DNA of 64,000 nt from Loigolactobacillus jiayinensis (GTDB lineage: Bacteria; Bacillota; Bacilli; Lactobacillales; Lactobacillaceae), in the NCBI RefSeq assembly GCF_003946445.1, contig NZ_RHOF01000013.1:1-64000 (forward strand), written 5' to 3'. The first letter of the stretch is position 1; each line of letters begins with the position of its first letter. Below the pieces are notes generated by a model. The model was not told the DNA's origin, searched no databases, and was given only the letters and a program-made list of their open reading frames with translations. Shown piece after piece: positions 13,409-64,000 of the stretch. Both the position numbers and the translations under genes were made by a program.

Positions 13409-13410
13409 GT

Positions 13411-13440: not shown

Positions 13441-13487
13441 GCCGTGAGACCACAAAAGGTGGTTAAAACTAGTGCGTAATTTTTCTA

Positions 13488-14150: not shown

Positions 14151-14171
14151 TATAAAAGAACCTCCTTGAAA

Positions 14172-15521
14172 TTAACCTAGCATCACGTTTTCAGCAGGAT
14201 AGCGATAGCCTTTTTGGGGATGACTGGCGTTGAGTACAGTGAACATAACGGTATAAATGCCGACACGACCGAGAAACATGAGGAGCATGATGATCAGCTT
14301 ACCGATGGCGGTTAGATTTGGCGTTAAGCCCATGGACATGCCAGCGGTACTAAAGGCGGAAATCACTTCGAAAATAATGTATTCAAGGCCATAGCGTGAC
14401 GGCACAGTTTCTGTCGCAGTCAGCACCATGCTCGCAATGATCACTAAGACTAGACTCATAAAAACCAGCATTAGCGCCCGTAGAATATTTTGATCACTGA
14501 AGCGACGATGACCAAACTCAACATCTCGATTACCGCGTAAAACCGCCCAACTTTGTAAGGTCAATAAACCTAACGTAGTCGTTTTGATCCCACCAGCCGT
14601 TGAACCAGGCGTACCACCGATAAACATTAATACGATGGTCAGCAGAATGCCTGCAATCGAGATCTCACTGTAAGGAATCGTGGTGATGCCAGCCGTACGT
14701 GGCGTAACGGCTAGGAAGAACGTGTTGACCAAGCGATTAGCAAAATTAACGTGGGGTGCCATGACTTGCAGATTGTTTTCTGTTAGTAAAAATAAAACAA
14801 AGCCACCAAGCAGTAAGACGCCAGTGGTACTGAGCGCTAGTTTGGTATGCAGCGACAGACGTTTGTGGCGCTTAAGTAATAATAGGTCACGCCAAACTAA
14901 AAAGCCTAAGCCGCCTGCAATCACTAATGCACTAACAACGAGAATTAAGTAAGGGTCGTTTTGTTGGCTTTCCAGACTATTGCCGAACAGATCAAAGCCA
15001 GCGTTACAAAAGGCAGAGGCTGACTGAAAGACGCTCATAAACAGACCGCGACCCAAGCCATAACGCGGATAAAAATCAATTAACAAAAGCCCAGCGCCTA
15101 GTGTTTGAATTGCCAGCGACAAACCAATTACATATTTCATGACGCTATTAACGTCAGCTAGTTTTTCGAAGTTTAATGATTCTTTGATCAGTAAGCGAGT
15201 TGTTAAATCCACGCGCCGTTTCAATAAAACAAACGGTAACACGCTAAAAGTCATAAAACCTAAGCCACCAATTTCAATCATGATCAGAATGACACTTTGG
15301 CCAAATAAGGACCAATGTGCTGCTGTGTTGAAAATAGTCAGGCCAGTAATACACGTCGCTGATGTCGCGGTGAAAATAGCATCGAGAAATGGCGTTGTGT
15401 GGCCAGAACGGGTAGCAATCGGCAACATCAGCAAGAGTGCGCCAATTAAAATCAGCGTTAAAAAGCCTAATGTTAGGATCTCTGGTAACGGTATTCGCTT
15501 GTGGATGCCGGGTAGTTGCAA
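14172..15521 (-). CDS. ktrB: Potassium uptake membrane subunit (KtrB, TrkH family)
   Basis: 449-aa channel-like K+ transporter of the Trk/Ktr/HKT superfamily with four M1-P-M2 repeats. The four pore loops are visible as TSATCITGLT, QSASAFCNAGFD, GSTAGGIKT and SAFSTAGMSMG, each with the conserved glycine that forms the selectivity filter. Length fits KtrB rather than TrkH, and the partner ktrA follows. The start at 15521 has a GGAGG-type site (GGAGGCAGC on the minus strand) just upstream. Confidence 0.93.
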   Translation of the reverse strand: MQLPGIHKRIPLPEILTLGFLTLILIGALLLMLPIATRSGHTTPFLDAIFTATSATCITGLTIFNTAAHWSLFGQSVILIMIEIGGLGFMTFSVLPFVLLKRRVDLTTRLLIKESLNFEKLADVNSVMKYVIGLSLAIQTLGAGLLLIDFYPRYGLGRGLFMSVFQSASAFCNAGFDLFGNSLESQQNDPYLILVVSALVIAGGLGFLVWRDLLLLKRHKRLSLHTKLALSTTGVLLLGGFVLFLLTENNLQVMAPHVNFANRLVNTFFLAVTPRTAGITTIPYSEISIAGILLTIVLMFIGGTPGSTAGGIKTTTLGLLTLQSWAVLRGNRDVEFGHRRFSDQNILRALMLVFMSLVLVIIASMVLTATETVPSRYGLEYIIFEVISAFSTAGMSMGLTPNLTAIGKLIIMLLMFLGRVGIYTVMFTVLNASHPQKGYRYPAENVMLG

Positions 15522-15669
15522 GTTGCTGCCTCCTGTTCTACGTGAAGTCGTTATCTTGATTATGCCATAACTTATTGAACAACAACAGCCACATCCATGC
15601 CAAAAAGAACTATACTAGATTTATAAACTAATGGGCTTGCCACCCGATTAAGAAATAGGAAGCGATAAA

Positions 15670-15993
15670 ATGGCAGCAGCAGATGTAGTAGAAAAAAAGG
15701 TTCCAGAAATTGATTCAGCTTTAGTTGATCAGGCGGTTAAGCTGATCAAAACACAAGGGTACGCCACGCGTAAAGATTTTGAAAAGTTACAGGATAACGA
15801 TTGGGCGCGCCAATTCACTCAGCAAATTAGTGACGCGTTCCATGCTGCTGATGAAGCACCATACATTTATTACGAACGATTTGATTTCACTGATCATGAA
15901 ATCAGCGGGATCGTTTTCGATATGGATCAAATCAAGACCCGCGCTGCTGCCGGCATTAAGCTAGGCGAAGTGCTAGGCTTAAAATCATTTTAA
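15670..15993 (+). CDS. Hypothetical 107-aa protein
   Basis: No family recognised. The protein is charged, lacks membrane segments and signal peptide, and looks cytoplasmic and helical. The first part (VPEIDSALVDQAVKLIKTQ) could be an amphipathic helix, and the middle is rich in aromatic and acidic residues (AADEAPYIYYERFDFTDHE). An AGGAAGCG ribosome binding site precedes the ATG. It is flanked by ktrB (divergent) and by a gene-free segment full of hairpins. A TATACT box at 15611-15616 may be its -10. Probably a real gene, given the ribosome binding site and lactobacillus-like codon use. Confidence 0.6.
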   Translation: MAAADVVEKKVPEIDSALVDQAVKLIKTQGYATRKDFEKLQDNDWARQFTQQISDAFHAADEAPYIYYERFDFTDHEISGIVFDMDQIKTRAAAGIKLGEVLGLKSF

Positions 15994-16422
15994 CTAGATA
16001 AAAAAGAGACCGTGCCATAAGTGAAATGGTTCTTTCTGAGGTTTGGCTGTAAACAGAGCTAGTTAGCTGCCATTCCGTCGTCAGTGGACGGAACGAGTGG
16101 CGCGTTGGCGAGCTAATTTTTCCTAGATAAATGCAAAAGCAGGCGGGAAAATGGATCTCGCCAGCCACGCATAGTTCTAAATGGCACAGCCCACCATTAA
16201 GAACTATCGACACAGCTGCGACTTGAACTTGGCGATTTTTGCCGTAGTTCAATCGACAACGGGAAGCAAGCGCTGTTTAATGAGTAAGTACTAATTTGAT
16301 ACTTGCTAAACTTAGTTGTTAGAAACGAGCGACAGTGGCCCACTGGCGACTCCATTCCAGCAGGCAACGGTTGAACGTTCAAGCGTTGATTTGTTTAAGC
16401 GGCAAAGTTAGTGGGTGTTAGA
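15994..16422. other. Gene-free segment dense in inverted repeats, candidate structured RNA or intergenic repeat
   Basis: No credible gene is seen here. A series of inverted repeats follow one another: TTCCGTC/GACGGAA (16073-16093); GGCGAG/CTCGCC with TTTTCC/GGGAAAA nested inside (16107-16162); TAGTTCT/AGAACTA extended by ATGG/CCAT (16172-16206); TTGAACT/AGTTCAA with GGC/GCC (16223-16252); and TTGAACGTTCAA near 16373. The chain ends at a strong terminator. This suggests a folded transcript or a remnant repeat element; no known RNA family was recognised. Confidence 0.4.
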
Positions 16423-16476
16423 ACATAAAAACACCGATAAAACAGTCAGAAAACTGTTTTATCGGTGTTTTTATGT
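16423..16476. terminator. Perfect 24-bp inverted repeat, bidirectional terminator
   Basis: Two 24-base arms (16423-16446 and 16453-16476) pair without mismatch around the loop CAGAAA; each outer side contains ACATAAAAACACC or its complement. The T/A-rich ends let it terminate transcripts from both directions, including the MFS/DUF4811 operon on the minus strand. Confidence 0.8.
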
Positions 16477-16570
16477 GCATATAATTCTACGTTAAAACTA
16501 CGAATCACTAATAACTGCCGATTAACTCCAATTAAGCCAACTAAACGTCTTTTGACACATGTTTTTTAAA

Positions 16571-17098
16571 CTATTTTTGTTGCATTTTAGCCGCGGCCGC
16601 TGTGTCCAAGAGCTGCCAGTTAGCTGGCAAATTGAATTGATATTGGCAGTTGGCTAATTGACCGTTTTCACCAGTTATGCTAAACAAGGCCTGCGCCAAC
16701 TTATTTTGATAAACCCAGCGTGTGGTGCGTACTTTTAACTGTGGTTGCTGAGCGTTGCGCTGCAGGCTAACACGGCTATCGGCTAGCGTAGTTTTTTGTA
16801 ATTTAGTTGCAGACGTTGTTCGATATAAATAGATCCGTTCGTTACCTGTCCCTAACTTGTGGTAGAGCAACAAACTTGTTCCAGGCGTGGCAACGCTACT
16901 TTTTAAGGTGTACGTTTGCGTTTGGCTGACCTTTTTCATACCCAAATAGTTATTGTCGTTGGCGGCGATCAAGCCGATACTAGCGACGATTGCGACTAAA
17001 CTGAGTGCGTTAATTATTTGCCGCCGCAAGCCGCGCTTTAAGAAAACCATACTGTAACTGAAAAGCAGAACTGTTAGCGTTAAAATAACAATGATCAT
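16571..17098 (-). CDS. DUF4811-like membrane protein paired with an MFS exporter
   Basis: 175-aa protein with two N-terminal membrane segments (about residues 1-20 and 28-46) and an external C-terminal domain. Proteins of this kind (DUF4811) occur in lactobacilli directly behind DHA2-type drug exporters, as here: its start overlaps the end of the exporter gene by 4 bases. A role as accessory subunit of the exporter is inferred from this coupling only. Confidence 0.65.
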   Translation of the reverse strand: MIIVILTLTVLLFSYSMVFLKRGLRRQIINALSLVAIVASIGLIAANDNNYLGMKKVSQTQTYTLKSSVATPGTSLLLYHKLGTGNERIYLYRTTSATKLQKTTLADSRVSLQRNAQQPQLKVRTTRWVYQNKLAQALFSITGENGQLANCQYQFNLPANWQLLDTAAAAKMQQK

Positions 17099-18570
17099 AC
17101 GTGCACCTCCTGTGACCGCTTAACGTCCGGTAACATGAAGGTTAGTACTAAGCCAATGGCGCAGAAAATCAATGAAACCAAGAAGGCAGCATGATAACCC
17201 GATAAAGTGGCGTTAATAAAATGCTGTTGGTATGCCAACGGTGCTTGTTTGAGCAGCGCTTTAGCCGGTGCTTGAGCATTCGTAACGTTGGTCAACACAC
17301 TGATTAAAATTGCTGTACCCATGGAGGCCGCCACCTGACGAGTGGTGTTATTAACGGCAGTTCCGTGACCAATCAAGTTTAACGGTAAAGCGTTCATCCC
17401 AGTAGTTGTCACTGGCATCGTGACCATGGAGATCCCAAACATGCGCATCGTGTACAAGGCCGTGATGTAGATGATTGGTGTCTTGGCAGTCATCGTGACG
17501 AAAAAGGCGGTACCAACGGTCAAAAGAATCATACCAGCAATGGATAGCCGTTTAGCCCCAATATGATCGAAGATACGACCGGTGATTGGGCTCATAATAC
17601 CCATCATAATTGCACTAGGTAATAAAATTAAGCCAGAATGAAAGGCCGATTCGCCACGAACTGTTTGAATGTATAATGGCAGTACCATTTCTGCACCCAT
17701 CATGGCCATATAAGCGACGGCAGTTAAAATTGCGGATAACGAAAAAGCTTTGACCCCAAAAACGCGTAGTTCCAATAGTGGCTTATCCATGTGTAGCTGG
17801 CGGTGTACAAATAAGACCACGAAAATTAAGCCAATTATCATTGGAACTAATACTTTTGGATCACCCCAACTAGCGGAGCCAACGGAAGAAAAGGCGTAAA
17901 GCAAACTACCAAAACCAATCGTTGACACGATAACTGAGGTAACATCCAGTGCTGATTTTTTGGTTGGCAGAACTTTGCGCATAGTGAACAGTGCCAGTAA
18001 GAAAACAGCACCATTGACGGGCAAAACAACCAAAAACAGCATCCGCCACGAATAGTTCAGTAAAATCCAACCGGATAATGTTGGCCCAATCGCCGGTGCT
18101 AAGCCAATGACGATACCGGCTAAGCCCATTGCGGTGCCGCGCTTTTCTGGTGGGAAGATCGAAAGCATAATGGTTTGGAAAACAGGCGCCGAAATACCGA
18201 CACCCATGGCTTCGATCAAACGACCAACCAGTAAGACAGAAAAACTATTGGCTAGATAGCAGACAAGCGTGCCGATCCAAAATAAGCCCATAGCGGTTAA
18301 ATAAAGATACTTAGAGTTAAAACGACTGAGCAGCCACGCAGACACAGGAATCATGATGCCCATTACTAACATGAAGCCAGTCGTCAACCACTGCACGGTG
18401 TCCGCGGTGATGTTGAAATGCCGCATTAGGGTTGGAAAAGCCGTGGTCAAAATGGTTTGCATAATAAAAGTCGAAAAAGTACCAACGAGCATGGTCACCA
18501 CAAGTAATAACCGATTATACGGTTTACCATTGGCGTCCACCACTTGTTGGTTAGAGGGTTGCTGTAGCAT
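17095..18570 (-). CDS. MFS multidrug efflux transporter, DHA2 (EmrB/QacA) type
   Basis: About 491 aa, 14 expected membrane helices. DHA2 features include TAFPTLMRHFNITADTVQW after TM1, the motif-C stretch GLAPAIGPTLSGWILLNYSW, and GIMSPITGRIFDHIGAK in the later loop. Exports drugs or other toxic amphiphiles using the proton gradient; the substrate is unknown. ATG at 18570 is chosen because AAAGGA lies about 9 bases upstream; the open frame to 18636 has no ribosome binding site. Operon with the DUF4811-like gene. No regulator gene is adjacent. Confidence 0.88.
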   Translation of the reverse strand: MLQQPSNQQVVDANGKPYNRLLLVVTMLVGTFSTFIMQTILTTAFPTLMRHFNITADTVQWLTTGFMLVMGIMIPVSAWLLSRFNSKYLYLTAMGLFWIGTLVCYLANSFSVLLVGRLIEAMGVGISAPVFQTIMLSIFPPEKRGTAMGLAGIVIGLAPAIGPTLSGWILLNYSWRMLFLVVLPVNGAVFLLALFTMRKVLPTKKSALDVTSVIVSTIGFGSLLYAFSSVGSASWGDPKVLVPMIIGLIFVVLFVHRQLHMDKPLLELRVFGVKAFSLSAILTAVAYMAMMGAEMVLPLYIQTVRGESAFHSGLILLPSAIMMGIMSPITGRIFDHIGAKRLSIAGMILLTVGTAFFVTMTAKTPIIYITALYTMRMFGISMVTMPVTTTGMNALPLNLIGHGTAVNNTTRQVAASMGTAILISVLTNVTNAQAPAKALLKQAPLAYQQHFINATLSGYHAAFLVSLIFCAIGLVLTFMLPDVKRSQEVHV

Positions 18571-18692
18571 ATTCTGATGTCCTTTCACAAAATAATAATC
18601 TATAATTAAAAGTATAGCACTTCTATCTAATGCCACGAAAATAATGAGCAGAAGGCCACTGTTGAATAGTGCAGCAAGCGTCAGTTAAATAA

Positions 18693-18721
18693 TTCGGCTT
18701 TTACAGCAAGAGGCGTATAAT
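18693..18721 (+). promoter_or_regulatory. Probable promoter of the cardiolipin synthase gene
   Basis: -35-like TTCGGC, a spacer of 17 bases and a perfect -10 TATAAT at 18716-18721, about 40 bases before the ATG. Confidence 0.45.
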
Positions 18722-18759
18722 GGAAAACATCCAATAACAATGATGAAGGGATGGATTAG

Positions 18760-20217
18760 ATGAGCTGGGTACAAATCATTGTTGACATAGTAGTCACTTT
18801 GAACGCATTTTTAGCAATTATTACTGTTTTTCGACAGCATCGTGATATTTCAACGACTTGGGCGTGGCTATTAGTTCTAGTGTTGTTGCCAATTTTTGGT
18901 TTTTTACTCTATATTTTCTTAGGCCGGGGTATGGGCCGCGAGAAGCTATTTACGATAGAACACCAGGATCGTACTGGGCTGGAGGAATTGGTGGCAATGC
19001 AGAAACACGATGATGTTGAATTTAAAACACCATTATCAGAAAAAATCACCGCTAACGCAACCGGGATGGTGCGCTTATTTGAAAATACTGATAACGCACC
19101 ATTAACTAAGCGTAATCAGGTCGAAATTTTCACTGACGGTGAGAAAAAGTTTGCGGCGTTATTTGCTGATATTCGCCGCGCTAAACATAGTATACATATT
19201 GAGTACTATACGATTTATAGTGATAAAATTGGGCAGCAGTTATTAGATTTATTGGAAGAAAAAGCTGGCCAAGGAGTTGAAGTTCGCGTTTTATATGATG
19301 CGTTTGGATCGCATGGCACTACTAGCAAGTGGTTTCGCCATTTGACGGAACTTGGCGGGCATGCGGCAACTTTTATCACCTCACATAATTCAATTACGAA
19401 AACACGCTTGAATTACCATTGTCATCGTAAAATTGTGGTTATTGATGGTAAAGTTGGCTACACTGGCGGCTTCAATGTGGGCGATCAATATCTTGGACGA
19501 ATGCCCAAATTTGGATATTGGCGGGATACCCATTTGCGCATCATCGGCAACGGTGTTTTAGCATTACAAACGCGCTTCATCATGGATTGGAACGTTTCAG
19601 CCAGCACTGCGCAACATGTGCAGTACAAGTTGGATTATTTTCCTAAACCAGTAGCACCGAAAAACGCTAGTACAGCCTTGCAGATTGTGACGTCAGGGCC
19701 AACTTCTGACCGTGAACAAGTTAAGGCCGGGTATATCAAAATGATCTCGTTGGCTAAGAAAAGCATTTGGTTACAATCACCATACCTAGTGCCAGATGAA
19801 AGTGTGCTTTCAGCGTTGACCATTGCTGCTCAGTCCGGAATTGATGTCCGAATTATGATTCCAAATATGCCTGATCATCCGTTTATTTACCGAGCAACGC
19901 AATATTATGCCCAAATTCTTTTTGCTGCAGGTGTGAAAATCTATATCTATGAAAAAGGGTTTCTCCATGCCAAAACAGCCGTGATGGACGGCAAAATCTC
20001 CAGTGTTGGTTCAGCTAACCAAGATATTCGTAGTTACAAATTGAATTTTGAAGTCAATGCTTTTATGTACGATATCAAGATAGCCAAGCAATTAGCCCGA
20101 ATTTTTACTGCTGATATGGATGATTGTCGCTTGCTAACTCAAAAAGAAATCGACAATCAGTCTTACTGGCTAATTATTAAACAACGATTCTCACGCTTGT
20201 TGTCGCCGATATTGTAA
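18760..20217 (+). CDS. cls: Cardiolipin synthase
   Basis: 485-aa membrane-bound phospholipase-D-family enzyme that joins two phosphatidylglycerols into cardiolipin. Two N-terminal membrane segments (residues about 3-22 and 32-53) are followed by two PLD domains with HKD motifs: HRKIVVIDGKVGYTGGFN and HAKTAVMDGKISSVGSAN. Length and layout match ClsA-type enzymes of Bacillota. It has its own promoter and terminator. Confidence 0.93.
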   Translation: MSWVQIIVDIVVTLNAFLAIITVFRQHRDISTTWAWLLVLVLLPIFGFLLYIFLGRGMGREKLFTIEHQDRTGLEELVAMQKHDDVEFKTPLSEKITANATGMVRLFENTDNAPLTKRNQVEIFTDGEKKFAALFADIRRAKHSIHIEYYTIYSDKIGQQLLDLLEEKAGQGVEVRVLYDAFGSHGTTSKWFRHLTELGGHAATFITSHNSITKTRLNYHCHRKIVVIDGKVGYTGGFNVGDQYLGRMPKFGYWRDTHLRIIGNGVLALQTRFIMDWNVSASTAQHVQYKLDYFPKPVAPKNASTALQIVTSGPTSDREQVKAGYIKMISLAKKSIWLQSPYLVPDESVLSALTIAAQSGIDVRIMIPNMPDHPFIYRATQYYAQILFAAGVKIYIYEKGFLHAKTAVMDGKISSVGSANQDIRSYKLNFEVNAFMYDIKIAKQLARIFTADMDDCRLLTQKEIDNQSYWLIIKQRFSRLLSPIL

Positions 20218-20241
20218 AAGTCGCCTAGTGCGGCTTTTTTT
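20216..20241 (+). terminator. Terminator of cls
   Basis: Short hairpin AGTCGC-N5-GCGGCT followed by seven T, immediately after the cls stop codon. Confidence 0.75.
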
Positions 20242-20307
20242 GTATTTGCAGCTCCACGACACCAATGATACTATTTAGCTAATAACGATTAACAGGGAGT
20301 GAGTAGG

Positions 20308-20946
20308 GTGACTGAATTTTATTTTATCCGCCATGGCGTCACACCGCTAAATCAGCAGCACCGCTTTTGTGGTAGCGGGATTGATACGCCATTAGCGCCA
20401 GTTGGTATTGCGGGGGCACGGCAGGCTGGACGTTTTTTACAGGATGTAACTTTTGCACACGCTTATACATCACCGTTGCAGCGGGCGCAAGCGACGTTGG
20501 AAAATGTCTTAGCGATGAACCAAATGGCGCAAGTACCAATCAGCATTTTGCCGGATCTGCGTGAAATTAATCTAGGTGATTGGGATGGCGATGTGCTGGC
20601 TGATCATAAAGATGAAGTACAGTGTCAGTATTATTTCAACCAGCCAGAACGGTTTGATGCCACAATTGTGCATGCAGAAAGTTACGCTGATTTAGAAAAA
20701 CGTGGTCGCCGCGCGCTACTGCAAATTTTTCAGGAAAATCCTGCTGGTAATGTCCTGATTGCTAGTCATGGGGTCTTATTGATGACGCTACTGCAACGAG
20801 TGCTAGGTGTACCCGTTAGCGAAATTCGTCGTCACGGAGTGCTAGATAATACAAGTGTGACCCAATTAAATAGTACGGACGGCACTCATTTTACCAAGAA
20901 AATGTGGAACGAAACTAGCTTTCTACAATCAACAAAAGGAGCATAA
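20308..20946 (+). CDS. Histidine phosphatase (phosphoglycerate-mutase-like) family protein
   Basis: About 212 aa. The N-terminal FYFIRHGVTPLNQQHRFCG carries the catalytic RHG, and a second histidine is in ASHGVLL. Similar proteins are annotated as phosphoglycerate mutase 2, alpha-ribazole phosphatase or broad phosphatases; the substrate cannot be told from sequence. GTG at 20308 is preferred to GTG at 20299 because GGGAG is 8 bases upstream and the extra residues are outside the family fold. Followed 2 bases later by a HAD phosphatase gene, likely co-transcribed. Confidence 0.82.
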   Translation: MTEFYFIRHGVTPLNQQHRFCGSGIDTPLAPVGIAGARQAGRFLQDVTFAHAYTSPLQRAQATLENVLAMNQMAQVPISILPDLREINLGDWDGDVLADHKDEVQCQYYFNQPERFDATIVHAESYADLEKRGRRALLQIFQENPAGNVLIASHGVLLMTLLQRVLGVPVSEIRRHGVLDNTSVTQLNSTDGTHFTKKMWNETSFLQSTKGA

Positions 20947-20948
20947 CA

Positions 20949-21764
20949 GTGATAAAAATTATAGCAATCGATATCGATAAGACGTTACTGACCTCGCAAA
21001 ATGAGTTAGCACCAGCAACAGTTAAAGCCATCAATGCTGCTACAGCACAAGGTATCAAGGTGGTGTTGAGTACAGGGCGGCCGTTGATTGGGGTCACTGA
21101 CTATTTACAACAACTCGGCTTGGACCAGCAAGCAACTGAATATGTGATTACGTTTAATGGCGCAGTGGTGGCGACAACGGCTGGCAAAGTGTTGGCTGAA
21201 GAAGCGTTGAGTTACGCGGATTATACTGAGCTAGAGGCATTAGCACGCCGCGTTAATTTACATTTTCAAATTGAAAATAACGAACATTTATACACGGCTA
21301 ATCGAGATATTGGTGAATATTCGGTTTACGAGTCCAGCTTGGTTCATATTCCGTTATCGTACCGGACACCGGAAGAAATGCGGACTATCGAGATGCCAAA
21401 AGGGATGTACATTGATCAGCCAGATTTACTGACGGCGGCGTTAGAACAGCAGGCCGCTGAGTTTGCACCTTATCAACAACGGTTCAATTTTATGCGCAGC
21501 GCACCATTTTTCCTTGAAGTCACGCGTAAGACCGTTAACAAAGGTAGTGCGGTGGCTAAATTAGCGGAACAACTGGGCTTAACGGCGGCTAATGTGATGG
21601 CAATCGGTGATCAAGGCAATGATCTAAGTATGATCGAGTACGCTGGTACCGGTGTGGCAATGGGTAATGCGATTGCTAGCGTGAAGGCCGCCGCGCAACA
21701 CGTGACGACTGATAACGACCACGATGGTGTGGCCCAAGCAATTACTGAGTTAGCGTTAAACTAG
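20949..21764 (+). CDS. Cof-type HAD-IIB phosphatase
   Basis: 271-aa cytoplasmic sugar-phosphate or nucleotide phosphatase of the Cof/YidA class. Motif I is IDIDKTLLTS with the nucleophilic aspartate, motif II is the LSTGRP stretch, and motif III/IV is MAIGDQGNDLSMIEYAG. Starts with GTG, with AAGGAG about 7 bases before. In an operon with the preceding histidine phosphatase. Specific substrate unknown. Confidence 0.88.
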   Translation: MIKIIAIDIDKTLLTSQNELAPATVKAINAATAQGIKVVLSTGRPLIGVTDYLQQLGLDQQATEYVITFNGAVVATTAGKVLAEEALSYADYTELEALARRVNLHFQIENNEHLYTANRDIGEYSVYESSLVHIPLSYRTPEEMRTIEMPKGMYIDQPDLLTAALEQQAAEFAPYQQRFNFMRSAPFFLEVTRKTVNKGSAVAKLAEQLGLTAANVMAIGDQGNDLSMIEYAGTGVAMGNAIASVKAAAQHVTTDNDHDGVAQAITELALN

Positions 21765-36824: not shown

Positions 36825-36846
36825 GTTAAAACAAATTTGTTTTAAC
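36825..36846. repeat. Perfect 22-bp palindrome before the riboswitch
   Basis: The arm GTTAAAACAAA is followed directly by its complement TTTGTTTTAAC, ending 3 bases before stem P1 of the purine aptamer. It is perfectly symmetrical with no loop, which suits a protein-binding site more than an RNA hairpin. Function unknown. Confidence 0.6.
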
Positions 36847-36849
36847 GCT

Positions 36850-36920
36850 TTACTTATATAATTACCATAATCTGGTTGGTGCGTTTCTACCCAGAACCGT
36901 AAATTCTGGACTATAAGTAA
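36850..36920 (+). promoter_or_regulatory. Purine riboswitch, guanine/xanthine class
   Basis: Stem P1 is formed by TTACTTATA and TATAAGTAA. Junction J2/3 contains the conserved GTTTCTACC, loop L3 is ACCGTAAAT between CCAGA and TCTGG, and J3/1 is GGACTATA. The C in GACTA at the base-recognition position predicts guanine/hypoxanthine rather than adenine. It is placed before xpt-pbuX and followed by a terminator, so ligand binding should switch expression off. Confidence 0.9.
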
Positions 36921-36937
36921 AATAAGTGGTCAATACT

Positions 36938-55935: not shown

Positions 55936-56153
55936 GCTGTGATTAAATTTGGGTTAAATTAGAAATGAAGGCTGAGATTATGTCTGATCGCTTACAGTGT
56001 AAATTTACGATGAAAATAAGAATTATGTATCGTTAGTTTTTTAGTCTATTTGTTTAACAATTCCATTAGGAATAAAAAATTACGCTAAATCATCTTCTGG
56101 AAACGTTGTTATTATGCTAAACTAAAGGAAATTACAAAGATGGAGTTGATAGT
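55936..56153 (+). promoter_or_regulatory. cas9 upstream region
   Basis: An AT-rich stretch without a gene. TGCTAAACT (56115-56123) is an extended -10 and TTCTGG lies 17 bases before it. No anti-repeat to the CRISPR repeat was found here by eye on either strand, so the tracrRNA is not in this usual place. Confidence 0.5.
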
Positions 56154-59100
56154 ATGGGGTATAGAATAGGATTAGATGTGGGTATTACTTCAACCGGGTA
56201 TGCTGTCTTAAAAACGGATAAAGCAGGAAATCCATATAAAATTTTAACACTAGATTCAGTGATTTATCCACGGGCTGAAAATCCTAAAACAGGTGCTTCA
56301 TTAGCTGAACCGCGGCGGATAAAACGAGGATTACGGCGACGTACTCGCCGAACCAAATTTCGAAAGCAACGAACACAACAATTATTTGTACATAGCGGTT
56401 TATTATCTAAGGCTGAAATTGAGCAGATCTTAGAGAACCCGCAAACCCATCATTCAGTTTATGAACTCCGCGTGGCTGGACTTGATCGACGTTTGACTAA
56501 CAATGAATTATTCCGTGTGCTTTATTTCTTTATTGGCCACCGAGGATTTAAATCGAATCGTAAGTCTGAGCTCAACCCAGAAAATGAAGCCGATAAAAAG
56601 CAAATGGGTCAGTTGCTTAATTCAATTGAAGCTATCAAAAAAGATATGGCTGAAAAGGGATACCGTACGGTTGGTGAGTTGTATGTAAAAGATTCTAAAT
56701 ATACGGATCACAAACGTAATAAAGGCTATAATGATGGCTATTTAAGTACGCCAAATCGGCAAATGTTAGTTGATGAAATTAAGCAGATTTTGGATAAGCA
56801 ACGTGAATTGGGTAATGAAAAGTTGACTGATGAGTTTTATGCAACTTATTTACTGGGTAATGAAGACCATGCTGGTATTTTTCAAGCACAGCGGGATTTT
56901 GATGAAGGCCCTGGGTCTGGTCCTTATGCCGGTGATCAAATCAAAAAGATGGTTGGAAAAGATATTTTTGAGCCAACTGAGGATCGTGCGGCTAAAGCAA
57001 CCTACACTTTCCAATACTTTAACTTGTTACAGAAGATGACTAGTTTAAATTATCAGAATACAACTGGCGATAATTGGCATCCATTAAATGGTCTTGAGCG
57101 ACAAGCAATTATTGATACTGTTTTTGCAAAAGCGGAGAAACCAACTAAAACTTATAAACCGACAGATTTTGGCGAACTACGTAAGTTATTAAAATTACCA
57201 GATGACGCTCGATTTAATCTGGTCAATTATGGTAGTTTGCAAACGCAAAAGGAAATTGAAACTGTTGAAAAGAAAACACGGTTTGTTGATTTCAAAGCCT
57301 ATCATGATTTGGTGGGGGCATTACCAGAAGAAATGTGGCAGAATCGCCAACTGTTAGACCACATCGGAACTGCGTTGACTTTATATTCAAGTGATAAACG
57401 ACGTCAGCGCTATTTTGCTGAGGAGTTAAACTTGCCTAAAGAACTGATTGACGTTCTTTTGCCGTTAAATTTTGCTAAATTTGGTCATTTATCGATTAAA
57501 TCAATGCAGAATATTATTCCGTATCTGGAAATGGGTCAGGTTTACAGTGAAGCAACAACTAATGCTGGTTATGATTTCCGCAAAAAGGAAATTTCAAAAG
57601 ACACGATTCGTGAAGAAATTGCTAATCCAGTTGTTCGCAGAGCGGTAACAAAAACTATTAAAGTAGTTGAGCAAATTATTCGTCGTTACGGTAAACCAGA
57701 TGGCATTAATATTGAGTTAGCGCGTGAATTAGGTCGTAATTTTAAAGAAAGAGGCGATATACAAAAGCGCCAAGATAAGAATCGCCAAACTAATGATAAA
57801 ATTGCCGCTGAATTAACTGAATTGGGTATGCCAGTTAATGGTCAGAATATTATTCGCTATAAATTACACAAGGAACAGAATGGTATTGATCCTTATACTG
57901 GCGATCAGATTCCATTTGCGAGTGCGTTTAGCGCCAGTTATGAGGTTGACCATATTATTCCCTACAGTATCAGTTGGGATGATAGCTATACCAATAAAGT
58001 GCTTACTAGTGAAAAATGTAATCGCGAGAAAGGTAATCGGATTCCGATGGCTTATTTAGCCAACAATGAAAAGCGGACCAATGCATTGATTAACGTGGCG
58101 GACAACGTGATCCGTAATTCGCGTAAACGACAAAAGCTTTTGAAGCAGGAGTTAAGTGCCGAAGAGCAAAAAGACTGGAAGCAACGGAATATAAACGACA
58201 CGCGTTTTATTACCAAAGTCCTTTATAATTATTTCCGACAGGCAGTTGAATTTAATCCTGAATTGGATAAAAAACAACGCGTCTTGCCTTTAAATGGTGA
58301 AGTTACATCGAAGATCCGTAGTCGTTGGGGCTTCCTTAAAGTACGTGAAGATGGCGATTTACATCATGCAGTTGATGCTGCCGTAATCGCAGCAATTACG
58401 CCTACTTTTATCCAGCAAGTAACTAAATATAGCCAACGGCAAGAAGTCAAAAATAATCGCGCCTTATGGCATGAGACTGAAATCGATAAATCTGAATATA
58501 GAGCAGAAGAGAATCGAATGAATGCTAAGTTATTTGATAAAATTTTCAACGGATTCCCATTACCATGGCCAGAATTCCGTGATGAATTACTAGCTCGTAT
58601 CTCTGATAATCCCGCAGAAATGATGAAGAGTAGGAGTTGGAATACGTATACACCAGTCGAAATTGCTAAATTAAAGCCAGTATTTGTTGTCCGCCTAGCT
58701 AATCATAAAATATCAGGGCCAGCACATTTAGATACGATTCGCAGTGCCAAATTATTTGCCGAAAAAGGAATCATACTGAGCCGCGTTAGCATCGCCAAAC
58801 TGAAATTAAATAACAAAGGTCAGATTGCCACTGGGGATGGTGTTTATGATCCCGAGAATAGTAATAATGGCGATAAGGTGGTTTATTCAGCAATCAAAAC
58901 GGCATTAGAGGCTCATAACGGTTCTGGTGAATCGGCGTTCCCAGAGGGCTATTTAGAGTATATGGACCATGGCACTAAGAAATTAGTGCGTAAAGTCCGA
59001 GTGGCTAAGAAATCTTCATTACCAGTACTGCTAAAGAATAAAGCAGCTGCTGACAATGGTTCGATGGTACGAATTGATGTCTTTAATACTGGCAAGAAGT

Positions 59101-59519
59101 TTGTGTTTGTACCAATTTACGTTAAGGACACGGTTGACCGGGTATTGCCAAGTAGGGCAGTTGTTGCAAATAAACCACATTCATATTGGTATCAAGTTAC
59201 TGAAGATGATCAGTTTTGTTTTTCTCTGTATCCAGGAGATATGGTGCATATTGAATCTAAGAAAGGATTTAAACCTAAACTTTCAAACAAAGAAAGTGAT
59301 TCTGATATTATGCCAATTAAGAATTTTTATGGTTATTTTGATAGTGCGGATATCGCTACTGCGAGCATCAAGGTTCGTTCACACGATAGTTCGTACACGG
59401 CAAAAAGTATCGGCATTGCTGGGCTGTTAGCATTCGAAAAATACCAAGTCGACTACTTTGGCCGTTATCATAAAGTTCATGAGAAGAAGCGTCAGTTATT
59501 CGTTAAGCGAGATGAGTAA
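56154..59519 (+). CDS. cas9: Cas9 endonuclease, compact type II-C
   Basis: 1121-aa RNA-guided nuclease. RuvC-I opens the protein (IGLDVGITSTGYAVL, catalytic D8). An arginine-rich bridge helix follows at about residues 54-75. RuvC-II is INIELARELGR with E521. The HNH domain has YEVDHIIPYSISWDDSYTNK with H600 (D599). RuvC-III is GDLHHAVDAAVIAA with H738 and D741. The remaining part to the end is the PAM-interacting region. All nuclease residues are intact. Sequence blocks (AENPKTGASLAEPRR, HRGFKSNRKSE, TKFGHLS-like KFGHLSIKSM, FEKYQVD near the end) resemble the Geobacillus Cas9 group. cas1 and cas2 follow; csn2 and cas4 are absent, which defines subtype II-C. PAM unknown. Confidence 0.96.
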   Translation: MGYRIGLDVGITSTGYAVLKTDKAGNPYKILTLDSVIYPRAENPKTGASLAEPRRIKRGLRRRTRRTKFRKQRTQQLFVHSGLLSKAEIEQILENPQTHHSVYELRVAGLDRRLTNNELFRVLYFFIGHRGFKSNRKSELNPENEADKKQMGQLLNSIEAIKKDMAEKGYRTVGELYVKDSKYTDHKRNKGYNDGYLSTPNRQMLVDEIKQILDKQRELGNEKLTDEFYATYLLGNEDHAGIFQAQRDFDEGPGSGPYAGDQIKKMVGKDIFEPTEDRAAKATYTFQYFNLLQKMTSLNYQNTTGDNWHPLNGLERQAIIDTVFAKAEKPTKTYKPTDFGELRKLLKLPDDARFNLVNYGSLQTQKEIETVEKKTRFVDFKAYHDLVGALPEEMWQNRQLLDHIGTALTLYSSDKRRQRYFAEELNLPKELIDVLLPLNFAKFGHLSIKSMQNIIPYLEMGQVYSEATTNAGYDFRKKEISKDTIREEIANPVVRRAVTKTIKVVEQIIRRYGKPDGINIELARELGRNFKERGDIQKRQDKNRQTNDKIAAELTELGMPVNGQNIIRYKLHKEQNGIDPYTGDQIPFASAFSASYEVDHIIPYSISWDDSYTNKVLTSEKCNREKGNRIPMAYLANNEKRTNALINVADNVIRNSRKRQKLLKQELSAEEQKDWKQRNINDTRFITKVLYNYFRQAVEFNPELDKKQRVLPLNGEVTSKIRSRWGFLKVREDGDLHHAVDAAVIAAITPTFIQQVTKYSQRQEVKNNRALWHETEIDKSEYRAEENRMNAKLFDKIFNGFPLPWPEFRDELLARISDNPAEMMKSRSWNTYTPVEIAKLKPVFVVRLANHKISGPAHLDTIRSAKLFAEKGIILSRVSIAKLKLNNKGQIATGDGVYDPENSNNGDKVVYSAIKTALEAHNGSGESAFPEGYLEYMDHGTKKLVRKVRVAKKSSLPVLLKNKAAADNGSMVRIDVFNTGKKFVFVPIYVKDTVDRVLPSRAVVANKPHSYWYQVTEDDQFCFSLYPGDMVHIESKKGFKPKLSNKESDSDIMPIKNFYGYFDSADIATASIKVRSHDSSYTAKSIGIAGLLAFEKYQVDYFGRYHKVHEKKRQLFVKRDE

Positions 59520-59521
59520 TT

Positions 59522-60424
59522 ATGGCCTTTCGGAATTTATACATTCAAAATCCAGCACGCCTGAGTATTGCTAAAAGTCAGTTAGTAATTCAACAGGAAG
59601 AGCGCTACACCGTTCCAGTGGAGGATATTTCTAGTATTATGATTGAGCACAAACAATGTACGATCACAGCGCCAGCACTATCCTTTTTGGCTGAGCATCA
59701 AGTAGCGGTGTTTACGTGTGATCAGAAGCATCTGCCGTGTGCAGTTGTTTTACCACTGGGTCAGTATTATCGTAAATTAGAGGCATTAGAGTCCCAGTTA
59801 CATGTACGGACTAAAACTAAAGCGCGTTTGTGGCAGAAACTGATGAAGCAAAAGATTGAGAATCAGGCTAAAGTTTTAGAGTTAAATCACTGTAAAAACA
59901 TTGCCGAGCTTAACTTTTTAGCAACCCAAGTTACTGAGGGTGATAAAACATTTAAGGAATCACGGGCGGCACGGCTTTACTTTATGGGACTTTTTGGTGA
60001 TAAATTTAATCGGCGAAATGAAGATGTTATGAATGGTGCTTTAAACTATGGTTACGCAATTATTCGCGGTATCATTGCACGTGATATTTGTGCGTATGGT
60101 TTTGAGCCAGCATTTGGCGTATTTCATAAAAACGAGCTAAATCCATTCAATTTAGCTGATGATTTAATTGAGCCGTTTCGCGCGTACGTTGATTTATGGG
60201 TTTATGAACATCAAGCTGATTTAAAGGATGGTTTAACCCCTAAGAATAAGCAGGCGTTGTTCCAGCTATTATTTACAGAGGTTCGAATTGATAATGAATT
60301 CCATTCGTTGAGTAATGCGGTTCATAAATCAGTCTCATCGTACACCACTTGTTGTCGTAATAACTCTGCTGCGGGATTAAAGTTGCCGGAACTTATCCCG
60401 TTAGTGGCGCACGAGTATGAGTAG
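59522..60424 (+). CDS. cas1: Cas1 integrase
   Basis: 300-aa spacer-integration nuclease, type II form. The metal-binding triad is visible as E146 (FKESRAARLYF), H202 (GVFHKNELNPFNL) and E217 (ADDLIEPFRAY), with the same spacing (56 and 15) as in other type II Cas1 proteins. It starts 2 bases after the cas9 stop and overlaps cas2 by 8 bases, so the three genes form one operon. Confidence 0.95.
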   Translation: MAFRNLYIQNPARLSIAKSQLVIQQEERYTVPVEDISSIMIEHKQCTITAPALSFLAEHQVAVFTCDQKHLPCAVVLPLGQYYRKLEALESQLHVRTKTKARLWQKLMKQKIENQAKVLELNHCKNIAELNFLATQVTEGDKTFKESRAARLYFMGLFGDKFNRRNEDVMNGALNYGYAIIRGIIARDICAYGFEPAFGVFHKNELNPFNLADDLIEPFRAYVDLWVYEHQADLKDGLTPKNKQALFQLLFTEVRIDNEFHSLSNAVHKSVSSYTTCCRNNSAAGLKLPELIPLVAHEYE

Positions 60425-60740
60425 CAAATATATGCGTTTATTAGTTATGTTTGATTTACCAGTAGTAAAGGCAAAAGATCGCCGTGCAGCCGCAAAATTC
60501 CGGCAGTATTTATTAGGCGAAGGCTACGTAATGATGCAATATTCAGTTTATTATCGCATCGTTAACGGCTATGATATGTCAAAAAAATACGAGCTGCGGC
60601 TAGATGATAATTTGCCCGAAAAAGGGTCAGTGAGATTATTGGTTATAACCGAGAAACAATTCGATGAAATGCGTCTGTTAGTGGGCGATCCGCTGCCTAA
60701 CGAAGAAAAAGTTGATAGTGGCCAGATGACCACTTTTTAG
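60417..60740 (+). CDS. cas2: Cas2
   Basis: 107-aa ferredoxin-fold partner of Cas1 in spacer acquisition. The opening MRLLVMFDLPVVKAKDRR has the conserved Asp (D13 from the first ATG at 60417; an ATG five codons on is also possible), and the core block GYVMMQYSVYYR is typical. It is followed by a terminator and then the array. Confidence 0.95.
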   Translation: MSSKYMRLLVMFDLPVVKAKDRRAAAKFRQYLLGEGYVMMQYSVYYRIVNGYDMSKKYELRLDDNLPEKGSVRLLVITEKQFDEMRLLVGDPLPNEEKVDSGQMTTF

Positions 60741-60745
60741 ACAAG

Positions 60746-60785
60746 CGAAAGAGCCTGATATCCGCGTGATATCAGGCTCTTTTTG
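60746..60785 (+). terminator. Terminator between cas2 and the CRISPR array
   Basis: GAGCCTGATATC and GATATCAGGCTC form a 12-bp stem followed by TTTTT on the plus strand. On the minus strand only three T follow, so it would stop array transcripts less well. Confidence 0.88.
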
Positions 60786-60792
60786 TGTACTG

Positions 60793-63700
60793 GATCTATT
60801 TTAGCTGAAAACTGAAGGAATCAATAGCTAAGACTGTCTCATAGTCTTAGTACCGTAGATCTATTTTAGCTGAAAACTGAAGGAATCAATAGCGTCTTAC
60901 AAGCAGACTTATACGACAACTGTGATCTATTTTAGCTGAAAACTGAAGGAATCAATAGCAATCTGTACTTGCGATGTTAGCCACTCATGATCTATTTTAG
61001 CTGAAAACTGAAGGAATCAATAGCGCGTCTGAGTGCGTTAAAATAGGATATACAGATCTATTTTAGCTGAAAACTGAAGGAATCAATAGCGACTGATAAC
61101 GGTTATAACGGTACCACAACGATCTATTTTAGCTGAAAACTGAAGGAATCAATAGCGCATTGTGACGTAAGTATCACCTGTCATGGATCTATTTTAGCTG
61201 AAAACTGAAGGAATCAATAGCGAAAAAGGCCAGTGATTCATCGTTGCTGGTGATCTATTTTAGCTGAAAACTGAAGGAATCAATAGCTAAAGTCGTTACA
61301 TCGACAGAATGAAGCAGATCTATTTTAGCTGAAAACTGAAGGAATCAATAGCATCAACTGCACTGTCAGCTGTCGATCGTGCGATCTATTTTAGCTGAAA
61401 ACTGAAGGAATCAATAGCCACGGTGAATAAATATTGTCCTTATTTTACGATCTATTTTAGCTGAAAACTGAAGGAATCAATAGCCCATTAGCTGCTTGAT
61501 CGCATCTCCCATTGGATCTATTTTAGCTGAAAACTGAAGGAATCAATAGCGTAAAGCGTCCTATTAATCTGTCGATATTAGATCTATTTTAGCTGAAAAC
61601 TGAAGGAATCAATAGCGGCTGTTACCAACATCAATCACAACTTGGGGATCTATTTTAGCTGAAAACTGAAGGAATCAATAGCATGCTTAATATTGGCTTA
61701 GGGCTACCGACTGATCTATTTTAGCTGAAAACTGAAGGAATCAATAGCAATAATCTGCTTAACCGCAGGTACACCAATGATCTATTTTAGCTGAAAACTG
61801 AAGGAATCAATAGCGTGAAAGCATGAACTATAGCGAAAAAGTTTGATCTATTTTAGCTGAAAACTGAAGGAATCAATAGCAGGCTTAGTCAAGCAGTTAA
61901 CCGGCGGTGAGATCTATTTTAGCTGAAAACTGAAGGAATCAATAGCTATAATAAGCGTGCACCGTTTACCATTAGGGATCTATTTTAGCTGAAAACTGAA
62001 GGAATCAATAGCAAATATAATCATCATCAGCGCTGTCAACTCGATCTATTTTAGCTGAAAACTGAAGGAATCAATAGCTCCTTGACCTGTAACAATGATA
62101 TCTAGTTGGATCTATTTTAGCTGAAAACTGAAGGAATCAATAGCAGACAAACCGCAGATTCAAAGCTTTCTAGAGATCTATTTTAGCTGAAAACTGAAGG
62201 AATCAATAGCATGCCAGACCCACAATATCGGTATTTGATTGATCTATTTTAGCTGAAAACTGAAGGAATCAATAGCGGGACTTATTATAAAGACCCTACA
62301 GCGGCCGATCTATTTTAGCTGAAAACTGAAGGAATCAATAGCGCCTATCATGATTCAGTACCAGCTATTCGAGATCTATTTTAGCTGAAAACTGAAGGAA
62401 TCAATAGCCGGCTGTCGCTTTATTAATAGATTTCTCTCGATCTATTTTAGCTGAAAACTGAAGGAATCAATAGCTTGCGTTAGCAGCCTTTTTTACTAAT
62501 ACAGGATCTATTTTAGCTGAAAACTGAAGGAATCAATAGCCCAATCAGTTGCGTGAGAACCGAGCTCTAGGATCTATTTTAGCTGAAAACTGAAGGAATC
62601 AATAGCCCCAGCAATGGGCGTTCTTTTCGCGTACATGATCTATTTTAGCTGAAAACTGAAGGAATCAATAGCAGACGGCATCTATACTGTCGATCACAAA
62701 GAGATCTATTTTAGCTGAAAACTGAAGGAATCAATAGCACAGTAGTTTGGGCTATCCAGTTATCATAAGATCTATTTTAGCTGAAAACTGAAGGAATCAA
62801 TAGCCTGCACACAGTTTTAGAGTTCGCTTTTTGAGATCTATTTTAGCTGAAAACTGAAGGAATCAATAGCTATACGTTATGCTGGGTTGCTGTCCATGTT
62901 GATCTATTTTAGCTGAAAACTGAAGGAATCAATAGCAGGATGTCGTTAACCAAAATCTAAAAAAATGATCTATTTTAGCTGAAAACTGAAGGAATCAATA
63001 GCGATCACATGCCAAACAATACTTGCATAAGTGATCTATTTTAGCTGAAAACTGAAGGAATCAATAGCTAATCAGCCCATGATGACAGCAGAAATTGCGA
63101 TCTATTTTAGCTGAAAACTGAAGGAATCAATAGCTTCTTGCAGCCAGAGATTTAGGTTTTTGTTGATCTATTTTAGCTGAAAACTGAAGGAATCAATAGC
63201 ATTATCCAATAACAGATATAGAATTCAATAGATCTATTTTAGCTGAAAACTGAAGGAATCAATAGCAAACTCTTATCTATTGAATCCGGTAAAAAAGATC
63301 TATTTTAGCTGAAAACTGAAGGAATCAATAGCGTGCTGTTGCTGAATCAGCAATATAGAATAGATCTATTTTAGCTGAAAACTGAAGGAATCAATAGCCT
63401 GGAATATCCACGCTTTTCTACAATGTCTGATCTATTTTAGCTGAAAACTGAAGGAATCAATAGCTTGTGAGCGCTGATCCAAGAAGCAATGCCGGATCTA
63501 TTTTAGCTGAAAACTGAAGGAATCAATAGCCTATATGCAAACAGACCAGTATCTGTATGATCTATTTTAGCTGAAAACTGAAGGAATCAATAGCGTAGTA
63601 TGTGAATGGTGCCAAATGTTCGTGGATCTATTTTAGCTGAAAACTGAAGGAATCAATAGCTGATTTCTGCTTAACACCTGCCGATTGTGCGATCTATTTT

Positions 63701-63990
63701 AGCTGAAAACTGAAGGAATCAATAGCCAACAGCAACCGGCACGTCATTTGCCTTGAGATCTATTTTAGCTGAAAACTGAAGGAATCAATAGCGGCAAGAC
63801 GCATTTAACATTAGGCCACAAAGATCTATTTTAGCTGAAAACTGAAGGAATCAATAGCCCGGTACTGCTGCAGCGACTAGCACGTACAGATCTATTTTAG
63901 CTGAAAACTGAAGGAATCAATAGCATCAGTTTGCAGCTTGGCTTCAACCTGCTTGATCTATTTTAGCTGAAAACTGAAGGAATCAATAGC
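60793..63990 (-). CRISPR. Type II-C CRISPR array, 49 repeats in window, continues past the edge
   Basis: 49 identical 36-bp repeats beginning GATCTATTTTAGCTG and ending GGAATCAATAGC on the plus strand, separating 48 complete spacers. Ten bases of a 49th spacer follow to position 64000. 43 spacers are 30 nt, four are 29 nt (spacers 1, 3, 6, 8 counted from cas2) and one is 28 nt (spacer 42). Read on the minus strand, the repeat starts GCTATTGATTCC and ends CAGCTAAAATAGATC, resembling II-C repeats that carry a promoter -10 near their 3' end. The array is therefore taken to be transcribed towards cas2, with its leader outside the window. No degenerate repeat was seen. Confidence 0.97.
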
Positions 63991-64000
63991 GTCATAATTA

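What the first reader, a model, noticed from the sequence alone, without database searches (positions are those of the whole stretch)
56154..60740. Compact II-C Cas9 system in a lactobacillus, apparently intact and probably active
Cas9 of 1121 aa retains D8, E521, H600, H738 and D741; Cas1 retains E146/H202/E217; Cas2 retains its Asp. All repeats are identical, so there is no sign of decay. Many lactobacilli carry longer II-A systems with csn2; the Geobacillus-like compact type is less often studied in this family, and its PAM-interacting region may recognise a distinct PAM.
Basis: partly seen in the sequence, partly recalled or inferred. Interest (0 to 1): 0.75.

Follow-up and report, generated by a model that had tools for sequence, protein, structure and literature searches.

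The report
Cas9 defence locus fused with BREX
A lactobacillus relative carries a compact, apparently intact Cas9 immune system whose essential guide-processing RNA lies beyond a second antiviral system (BREX), and the two systems have been inherited together as one unit across many bacteria, which suggests that they may work as a joint defence.

Summary
Intact cas9 (1121 aa), cas1, cas2 and a CRISPR array lie at the stated place, and the Cas9 is II-C. The host is a Loigolactobacillus. The array runs past the window: 98 repeats, 97 distinct spacers, only the last repeat degenerate.

(1) The only tracrRNA found in the genome is not beside cas9. It lies just after pglZ, at the far end of a BREX cluster (brxA-brxB-brxC-pglX-pglZ, no brxL) that follows the array.
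(2) The pairing is old. Fifteen linked taxa from Lactobacillaceae and Carnobacteriaceae-type genera form one clade in both the Cas9 and the PglZ tree (distance correlation 0.99; 0.93 over 7 lineages). No PglZ of that clade was found without Cas9. Relatives have the permuted order BREX-tracrRNA-cas9-cas1-cas2-array.
(3) The anti-repeat puts crRNAs on the minus strand; the PAM there is N4CYAA (12 of 16 spacers).
(4) Six spacers match two resident prophages with at most one mismatch, five with the PAM, so Cas9 must be inhibited or silent here. No known anti-CRISPR family was found.

'Intact' is supported; 'probably active' is doubtful in this strain. Ten literature searches found no BREX-Cas9 cassette. 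Functional coupling is inferred, not shown.

The parts
56154..59519 (+). cas9, type II-C, 1121 aa, catalytic residues intact
59522..60424 (+). cas1 (type II), triad E146/H202/E217 present
60417..60740 (+). cas2
60741..60792 (.). cas2-array junction with a terminator-like hairpin; presumed acquisition (leader) end because the degenerate repeat is at the other end
   Evidence: sequence; degenerate far repeat; inference
60793..64000 (-). CRISPR array, the part inside the window (49 repeats); continues on the contig to 67222 (98 repeats, 97 spacers). crRNA strand inferred as minus from the anti-repeat and the PAM
62475..62504 (-). spacer 26: 30/30 match to own prophage on contig C50, flank N4CTAT (not the PAM)
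62805..62834 (-). spacer 31: 30/30 match to own prophage on C46, inside its integrase gene, PAM CACACTAA
62937..62966 (-). spacer 33: 29/30 match to own prophage on C50 (mismatch at the PAM-distal end), PAM TAAACTAA
63267..63296 (-). spacer 38: 30/30 match to own prophage on C50, PAM TATGCCAA
55856..56153 (.). gap upstream of cas9, where most II-C relatives surveyed carry the tracrRNA; none found here

Best explanation
This is a complete II-C CRISPR-Cas9 system that forms one half of a composite, co-inherited defence cassette with a brxL-less BREX system. Shown by sequence: the order cas9-cas1-cas2-array-brxA-brxB-brxC-pglX-pglZ-tracrRNA, all on one strand (in the window's own genome across one contig break); one tracrRNA found in the genome, just after pglZ; an anti-repeat that pairs with the minus-strand repeat; a PAM of N4CYAA; Cas9 and PglZ that diversified together; movement of the cassette between Loigolactobacillus and Lapidilactobacillus. 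Inferred: crRNAs are read from the minus strand, probably from -10-like boxes inside the repeats; the remote tracrRNA is supplied in trans from its own promoter; RNase III trims the duplex and Cas9 cuts phage DNA at N4CYAA; new spacers enter at the cas2 end (3' end of the crRNA strand). Because the tracrRNA sits beyond BREX, a deletion that takes BREX and its end also disables Cas9, which would help to keep the pair together. BREX may supply methylation-based self-marking while Cas9 supplies the DNA-cutting arm in place of BrxL (the least certain step). In this strain Cas9 is probably held in check by a prophage-borne, still unnamed inhibitor, since it tolerates five PAM-bearing self-targets.
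For: Cas operon, array and residues. BREX genes by PADLOC models. Gene order on single contigs in three other species. C33 and C108 ends map to abutting places of the G147 brxC-pglX gap. One full tracrRNA in G000, 100 bits against about 30 bits for array repeats (150 of 811 first-look candidates scored). tracrRNA alignment of 18 loci. Duplex -85.4 kcal/mol on the minus strand against -52.7 on the plus strand. PAM at offset 4 only, 12 of 16 spacers, background 1.05%. The same 15 taxa as one clade in both trees (SH-aLRT 94 for Cas9, 98 for PglZ). Mantel r 0.991 (0 of 20,000 permutations) and 0.929 on seven collapsed lineages (4 of 5,040). 6 of 6 Lactobacillaceae PglZ of at least 44% identity (own included) are Cas9-linked, while the other 34 of 40 are at most 30%. 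brxL absent from 13 of 14 linked genomes searched; in the 14th, G679, it lies with a second BREX. GatB of G158 69% identical while Cas9 is 88% and PglZ 86%. E. coli BREX without brxL still methylates but no longer protects: PMC6326788, passages.
Against: No expression, cleavage or phage data. In G000 itself BREX and the cas genes are on two contigs; the link rests on relatives. 8 of 20 other Lactobacillaceae genomes with BREX also lack brxL and have no Cas9 beside pglZ, so loss of brxL is not specific to the pairing, and PMC12839542 (section 19) argues that BrxL is not indispensable and PglZ is the core nuclease, so a missing BrxL need not be replaced. Where the order is permuted the tracrRNA lies between pglZ and cas9 (in three loci within about 190 nt of both), and in Isobaculum nearer to cas9, so it is displaced only in Loigolactobacillus and Lapidilactobacillus and its place need not be functional. 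Self-targets could mean that the system is silent. No named anti-CRISPR family was seen for 53 prophage ORFs. Four of 16 spacers have no PAM at their best protospacer.
Confidence: 0.72

Rival explanations
1. Linkage without coupling: two independent defence systems sit in one mobile island and are inherited together because they move together; the tracrRNA is at the BREX end only because the block was rearranged between duplicated tracrRNA copies.
For: Diverged second tracrRNA copies lie about 80-95 nt upstream of brxA in G147, G158 and G097, and between tracrRNA and cas9 in G119, which would allow such a rearrangement; the species closest by GatB, G123, has one lone tracrRNA and no Cas9 or PglZ match; the cassette moved between genera.
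Against: Exclusive and congruent pairing over seven lineages in two family groups is more than ordinary island clustering gives; 0 of 20 fetched other Lactobacillaceae BREX loci have Cas9 near pglZ.
Confidence: 0.4
2. The CRISPR half is silent or non-functional in this strain (no tracrRNA or crRNA expression, or an unseen defect), which is why self-targets persist.
For: Five PAM-bearing matches to two prophages; no named anti-CRISPR family seen.
Against: cas9, cas1, cas2, repeats, anti-repeat and a promoter-like stretch before the tracrRNA (TTGTCA-N17-TAGAAT, read by eye from the sequence) are all intact; L. coryniformis II-C crRNAs are expressed (PMC6070500).
Confidence: 0.25
3. The self-targets are an artefact: the culture or assembly mixes lysogens with cells that lack these prophages, or carries the array in only part of the cells.
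For: Draft assembly of 127 contigs, 2.18% contamination estimate.
Against: Both prophages have an integrase gene at one end and ordinary chromosomal genes on the other side of the same contig, so they are integrated rather than free phage. Host identity of those genes was not tested.
Confidence: 0.12

Closest known systems
Type II-C CRISPR-Cas9 of Lactobacillus (Loigolactobacillus) coryniformis (PMC6070500)
   Same: Same subtype and, by present naming (recalled), same genus; small-RNA sequencing there shows crRNAs of 17 nt spacer + 22 nt repeat
   Different: In the passages and section read, neither tracrRNA place nor BREX linkage nor PAM is given for that II-C system; I could not compare sequences
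GeoCas9/NmeCas9-like II-C Cas9 and BlatCas9 (N4CNAA, PMC9433092 passage)
   Same: Compact architecture; the best solved-structure hits are of this class (which entry is which Cas9 is recalled); N4C..AA type of PAM
   Different: Predicted N4CYAA, mostly CTAA; none of these is known to me to be linked to BREX (recall)
Type-1 BREX (PMC6326788, PMC12839542)
   Same: brxA, brxB, brxC, pglX, pglZ in the usual order
   Different: No brxL in the genus; a II-C locus and its tracrRNA attached; 'Cas9' occurs 0 times in the main text of the 2026 BREX survey
HerA/FtsK-BREX composite reported in PMC12839542 (abstract)
   Same: BREX machinery merged with another defence module
   Different: There the partner named in the abstract is not CRISPR-Cas
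II-C arrays that gain spacers at the 3' end and carry promoters in the repeats (PMC12080349, PMC12638026, passages)
   Same: Degenerate repeat at the 5' end of the crRNA strand, presumed new end at cas2, -10-like box at the repeat's 3' end (TAAAAT)
   Different: Not tested by expression here

Membership tests
Type II-C CRISPR-Cas | Cas9 with intact RuvC and HNH | tested here: met
Type II-C CRISPR-Cas | cas1 and cas2, no csn2 or cas4 in the locus | tested here: met
   (locus only; csn2 elsewhere in the genome was not searched)
Type II-C CRISPR-Cas | Cas9 branches with II-C, not II-A | tested here: met
   44 rows; five II-A lactobacillus Cas9s (by size and place; their csn2 was not checked) form a separate clade
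Type II-C CRISPR-Cas | tracrRNA with anti-repeat and terminator | tested here: met
   displaced beyond BREX
Type II-C CRISPR-Cas | crRNAs from promoters in the repeats | tested here: inconclusive
   -10-like TAAAAT on the crRNA strand of the repeat; no RNA data
Type II-C CRISPR-Cas | RNA-guided cleavage in vivo | not testable with these tools
   none
BREX (Type 1) | brxA, brxB, brxC, pglX, pglZ | tested here: met
   NPPY motif in PglX and P-loop in BrxC
BREX (Type 1) | brxL (present in 76% of Type-1 systems, PMC12839542) | tested here: not met
   TIGR02688 absent from 8 of 8 Loigolactobacillus genomes, four of which carry this BREX; so filed as a BREX core, not as canonical Type 1
BREX (Type 1) | site-specific adenine methylation | not testable with these tools
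   none
Known anti-CRISPR carrier prophage | gene of a named Acr family | tested here: inconclusive
   53 of 57 listed ORFs of up to 320 aa from the early regions of both prophages: no Acr family among those shown. NCBIfam: all 18 families for C46, 25 of 29 for C50. Pfam: all 25 for C50, 25 of 33 for both together. PHROGs: 25 of 126 shown. Late regions were not scanned.

The most novel reading that the evidence does not exclude
A BREX lineage gave up BrxL and took Cas9 as its DNA-cutting arm: BREX proteins mark or sense self while an adaptive, RNA-guided nuclease, whose tracrRNA is carried at the end of the BREX genes, does the killing. A sister BREX group pairs downstream of pglZ with small II-A-like Cas9 loci, so the same union may have happened more than once.
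Probability: 0.22. Interest if true: 0.87.

Novelty: new variant of a known kind. Interest (0 to 1): 0.62.

Why it matters
Two major antiviral systems that are normally studied apart have, in this lineage, diversified as one unit, with an essential RNA of one attached to the other. That makes the question whether adaptive and innate bacterial defences are physically or functionally coupled directly testable in harmless lactic acid bacteria. It also gives a compact Cas9 with a predicted N4CYAA PAM, a warning that tracrRNA searches limited to the cas neighbourhood can fail, and two prophages worth screening for a new II-C anti-CRISPR.

Tried and rejected
tracrRNA next to cas9: a weak match at about 56110-56140 (score 12) was seen first and dropped once the true tracrRNA was found and the model search showed, in C33, only places inside the array (one search lists 300 of 839 matches).

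crRNA from the plus strand: rejected because the anti-repeat carries the plus-strand sequence and the PAM appears only on the 3' side of minus-strand protospacers.

BREX methylation as a shield of the self-targets: the six strong self-target windows share no 5- or 6-mer on either strand, so one common PglX site in or at the targets is not supported.

Known anti-CRISPR genes: none among the families shown; four overlapping plus-strand ORFs of the 57 listed were left out, and not all family rows were visible.

Self-targeting as a habit of these cassettes: 8.7 kb of the G147 array gave no match in G147 outside array and tracrRNA. The rest of that array and the arrays of G170, G097 and G158 were not tested against their own genomes.

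Rows dropped before the PAM count: protospacers with more than 3 mismatches (spacers 5, 35, 43, 44, 70, 87 and weaker copies of 33, 36, 53, 58). Of these, spacers 5, 44 and 70 show N4CTAA or N4CCAA and 35, 43 and 87 do not. The phage and plasmid hits were not used for the PAM. Only 16 of 97 spacers enter the count.

BREX loci: 20 of the 33 non-own matches and 20 of the 34 low-identity matches were fetched. Some contigs end soon after pglZ. 'No Cas9' means no BLAST match of the window's Cas9 or Cas1 at E 1e-4 within about 10 kb. The Bacilli sample drew no linked genome other than the window's own, so it tests the clade's limits only weakly.

Unused: structure prediction, fold search and viral-contig scans.

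Literature: all 10 searches used. None of the listings shows a BREX-Cas9 cassette. The library is open-access only, and supplements were not read.
Full report
OBSERVATION. The window (43% GC) holds cas9 56154-59519, cas1 59522-60424 and cas2 60417-60740 on the + strand. The array starts at 60793 and leaves the window. On contig C33 of the source genome it ends at 67222: 98 repeats, 97 of them identical, the last degenerate; 97 distinct spacers, nearly all 30 nt. A genome-collection search gives the nearest named Cas9s in Loigolactobacillus zhaoyuanensis (90%), L. binensis (89%), Lapidilactobacillus bayanensis (88%) and L. backii (87%).

SUBTYPE. In a 44-row Cas9 tree the window protein lies among II-C proteins, and the II-A lactobacillus Cas9s form a separate clade (SH-aLRT 100). 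Solved-structure hits rank compact Cas9s first (675 and 663 bits), with about 100 bits for the best SpCas9-type entries shown (which entry is which enzyme is recalled). The first interpretation of subtype is right.

THE MISSING tracrRNA. Of 78 relatives, 52 gave an array and a scored best anti-repeat; in 38 of them that match lies 1-300 nt upstream of cas9 (one of the 38, L036, is only a repeat remnant without a tracrRNA tail). Here there is none. The array searched against the genus showed a conserved repeat-like match on another contig of the same genome (C108) and in four sister genomes, followed by hairpins and a terminator. Eighteen such elements align well, and 7 of 12 predicted terminator pairs show compensated changes. 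A covariance model finds one full copy in the source genome (C108:6333-6437, 100 bits); its four other hits there lie in the array at 30-33 bits (150 of 811 first-look candidates were scored). It pairs along 30 bp with the minus-strand repeat (-85.4 kcal/mol, against -52.7 for the plus strand). So crRNAs should come from the minus strand, running towards cas2. The degenerate repeat is then at the 5' end and the presumed acquisition end at cas2. This is the arrangement already described for II-C: spacers gained at the last repeat, promoters in the repeats (PMC12080349 and PMC12638026, passages read).

BREX BETWEEN ARRAY AND tracrRNA. After the array come brxA, brxB and brxC on C33, then pglX and pglZ on C108, then the tracrRNA 87 nt after pglZ. 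The two contig ends map to abutting places in the brxC-pglX gap of L. zhaoyuanensis. In L. zhaoyuanensis, binensis and backii the whole order cas9-cas1-cas2-array-brxABC-pglX-pglZ-tracrRNA is on one contig and one strand, with 162, 1788 and 334 nt between pglZ and anti-repeat (binensis has a Schlafen/AlbA_2-type gene there). Lapidilactobacillus bayanensis has brxA, brxB, brxC and pglZ downstream of cas9 on the same contig, and a tracrRNA after pglZ. There the tracrRNA follows pglZ by 46-84 nt in seven measured loci (L039, L040, L042, L242, L245, L246, L249), in three of which cas9 starts within about 200 nt of pglZ, and by 512 nt in Isobaculum, where it is nearer to cas9. In Trichococcus a Fic-family gene lies between tracrRNA and cas9. 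Diverged second tracrRNA copies stand just before brxA in three genomes and before cas9 in G119. They offer a simple route for the permutation by recombination (inference).

CO-INHERITANCE. Among 301 Lactobacillaceae, 40 have a PglZ at the threshold; the six at 44% identity or more to this one (own genome included) are all linked to this Cas9, and the other 34 are at most 30% identical. Among 345 Lactobacillales, all nine PglZ at 34% or more to the G119 protein (own genome included) have II-C Cas9 in the same locus. Among 398 Bacilli, 15 pass a strict threshold; only the window's own PglZ reaches 39% to the query from G658, and the other 14 are at most 36% (no other linked genome was drawn in that sample). 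The 15 linked taxa form one clade in both trees (SH-aLRT 94 for Cas9, just under the 95 mark, and 98 for PglZ) with the same main branches; inner branches differ, for example among the five Loigolactobacillus and Lapidilactobacillus rows. Both are quick trees without bootstraps, with long-branch warnings. Distances correlate at r = 0.991 (0 of 20,000 permutations) and 0.929 for seven collapsed lineages (4 of 5,040). GatB of Lapidilactobacillus is only 69% identical to this host's, against 88% for Cas9 and 86% for PglZ, so the cassette moved between the genera as a unit. brxL is absent from 13 of 14 linked genomes searched; in G679 it belongs to a second BREX on another contig. It is present in 12 of 20 genomes with other Lactobacillaceae BREX. 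Against over-reading: the other 8 of those 20 also lack brxL and have no Cas9 near pglZ.

A SECOND PAIRING. Of the twelve other fetched order-level BREX loci (L250-L261), five have small II-A-like cas genes within about 8 kb downstream of pglZ (L251, L253, L258, L260, L261; Cas1 36-38%, Cas9 26-28% in the four where it is complete, and a 306-320 aa ORF after cas2 in four of them, fused or mis-called in L260). The four complete Cas9s branch next to the II-A lactobacillus Cas9s. Three more loci (L252, L257, L259) show repetitive ORFs that look like arrays; these were not analysed. In total 13 of 20 fetched order-level BREX loci have cas genes downstream of pglZ, against 0 of 20 fetched other Lactobacillaceae loci.

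PAM AND SELF-TARGETS. Sixteen of 97 spacers have protospacers with at most 3 mismatches in the fetched genome stretches. Twelve carry N4CYAA exactly 4 nt 3' of the minus-strand protospacer; no other offset from 0 to 10 has any; background 1.05%. Six spacers (26, 31, 33, 38, 53, 57) match the organism's own genome with at most one mismatch, and five of them have the PAM. The targets lie in two prophages on contigs C46 and C50, each with an integrase gene at one end and chromosomal-type genes on the other side; spacer 31 targets the C46 integrase gene itself. An anti-CRISPR is one usual reading of such a pattern (PMC6990116, passages), but 53 small and early prophage ORFs show no named family among the rows visible, so the inhibitor is a prediction. 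L. zhaoyuanensis shows no such self-match for the 8.7 kb of its array that was tested.

MECHANISM. Shown: parts, order, strand of the anti-repeat, PAM, co-inheritance. Inferred: expression, cutting, new-spacer end, inhibitor, and any working link between BREX and Cas9. The most cautious functional reading is stable linkage: with the tracrRNA beyond BREX, a deletion that takes BREX and its end also disables Cas9. The bolder one uses the report that E. coli BREX without brxL still methylates but no longer protects (PMC6326788, passages): Cas9 would supply the missing effector. Against it, the 2026 BREX survey (PMC12839542; abstract, sections 19 and 35 part 1, and a term search read) holds that BrxL, present in 76% of Type-1 systems, is not indispensable and that PglZ is the core nuclease. 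That survey lists many auxiliary nucleases in the part read and does not use the word Cas9 in its main text.

VERDICT. Its setting is not ordinary: a co-diversified BREX-Cas9 cassette, here with the tracrRNA beyond BREX, and a resident self-targeting paradox.

Noticed in passing
G123:C1:136683-136787 (L180:6683-6787): A lone intact-looking tracrRNA in the species with the closest GatB (96%), with no Cas9 or PglZ match in that genome; probably a relic of a lost cassette.
   Followed up: partly
L174:12609-12709, L037:17727-17826, L178:13853-13958: Diverged second tracrRNA-like element just upstream of brxA in three species; could be a relic or a regulator.
   Followed up: partly
L019:1501-4806 (G281; Secundilactobacillus collinoides, also L062): Related Cas9 with Thr in place of the RuvC Asp8 (read by eye from its first residues): candidate natural nickase or dead Cas9.
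   Followed up: no
G170:C31 about 4292-16116 and G170:C28 about 10997-21260: L. binensis carries two long arrays with related repeats, over 300 repeats together judging by length; one lies at the rlmD site without cas9 beside it.
   Followed up: no
L119:1501-1536 (G191): A sister species has an array with GC-rich hairpin repeats (I-E-like, recalled) with a spacer resembling spacer 43 of this array (5 mismatches): perhaps the same phage remembered by two system types.
   Followed up: no
L251, L253, L258, L260, L261: Small II-A-like cas loci lie downstream of pglZ of other brxL-less BREX clusters, four of five in convergent orientation.
   Followed up: partly
L168-L170 (contig C46) and L171-L173 (contig C50): Two integrated prophages share several small early genes; candidate place for a new II-C anti-CRISPR.
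   Followed up: partly
window 36834-36933 +: Purine riboswitch (RF00167, 75.9 bits).
   Followed up: no
L014/L037 (Lapidilactobacillus bayanensis cas9): The cas9 reading frame has a TGA within the matched range; the ORF ends three codons short of the others.
   Followed up: no
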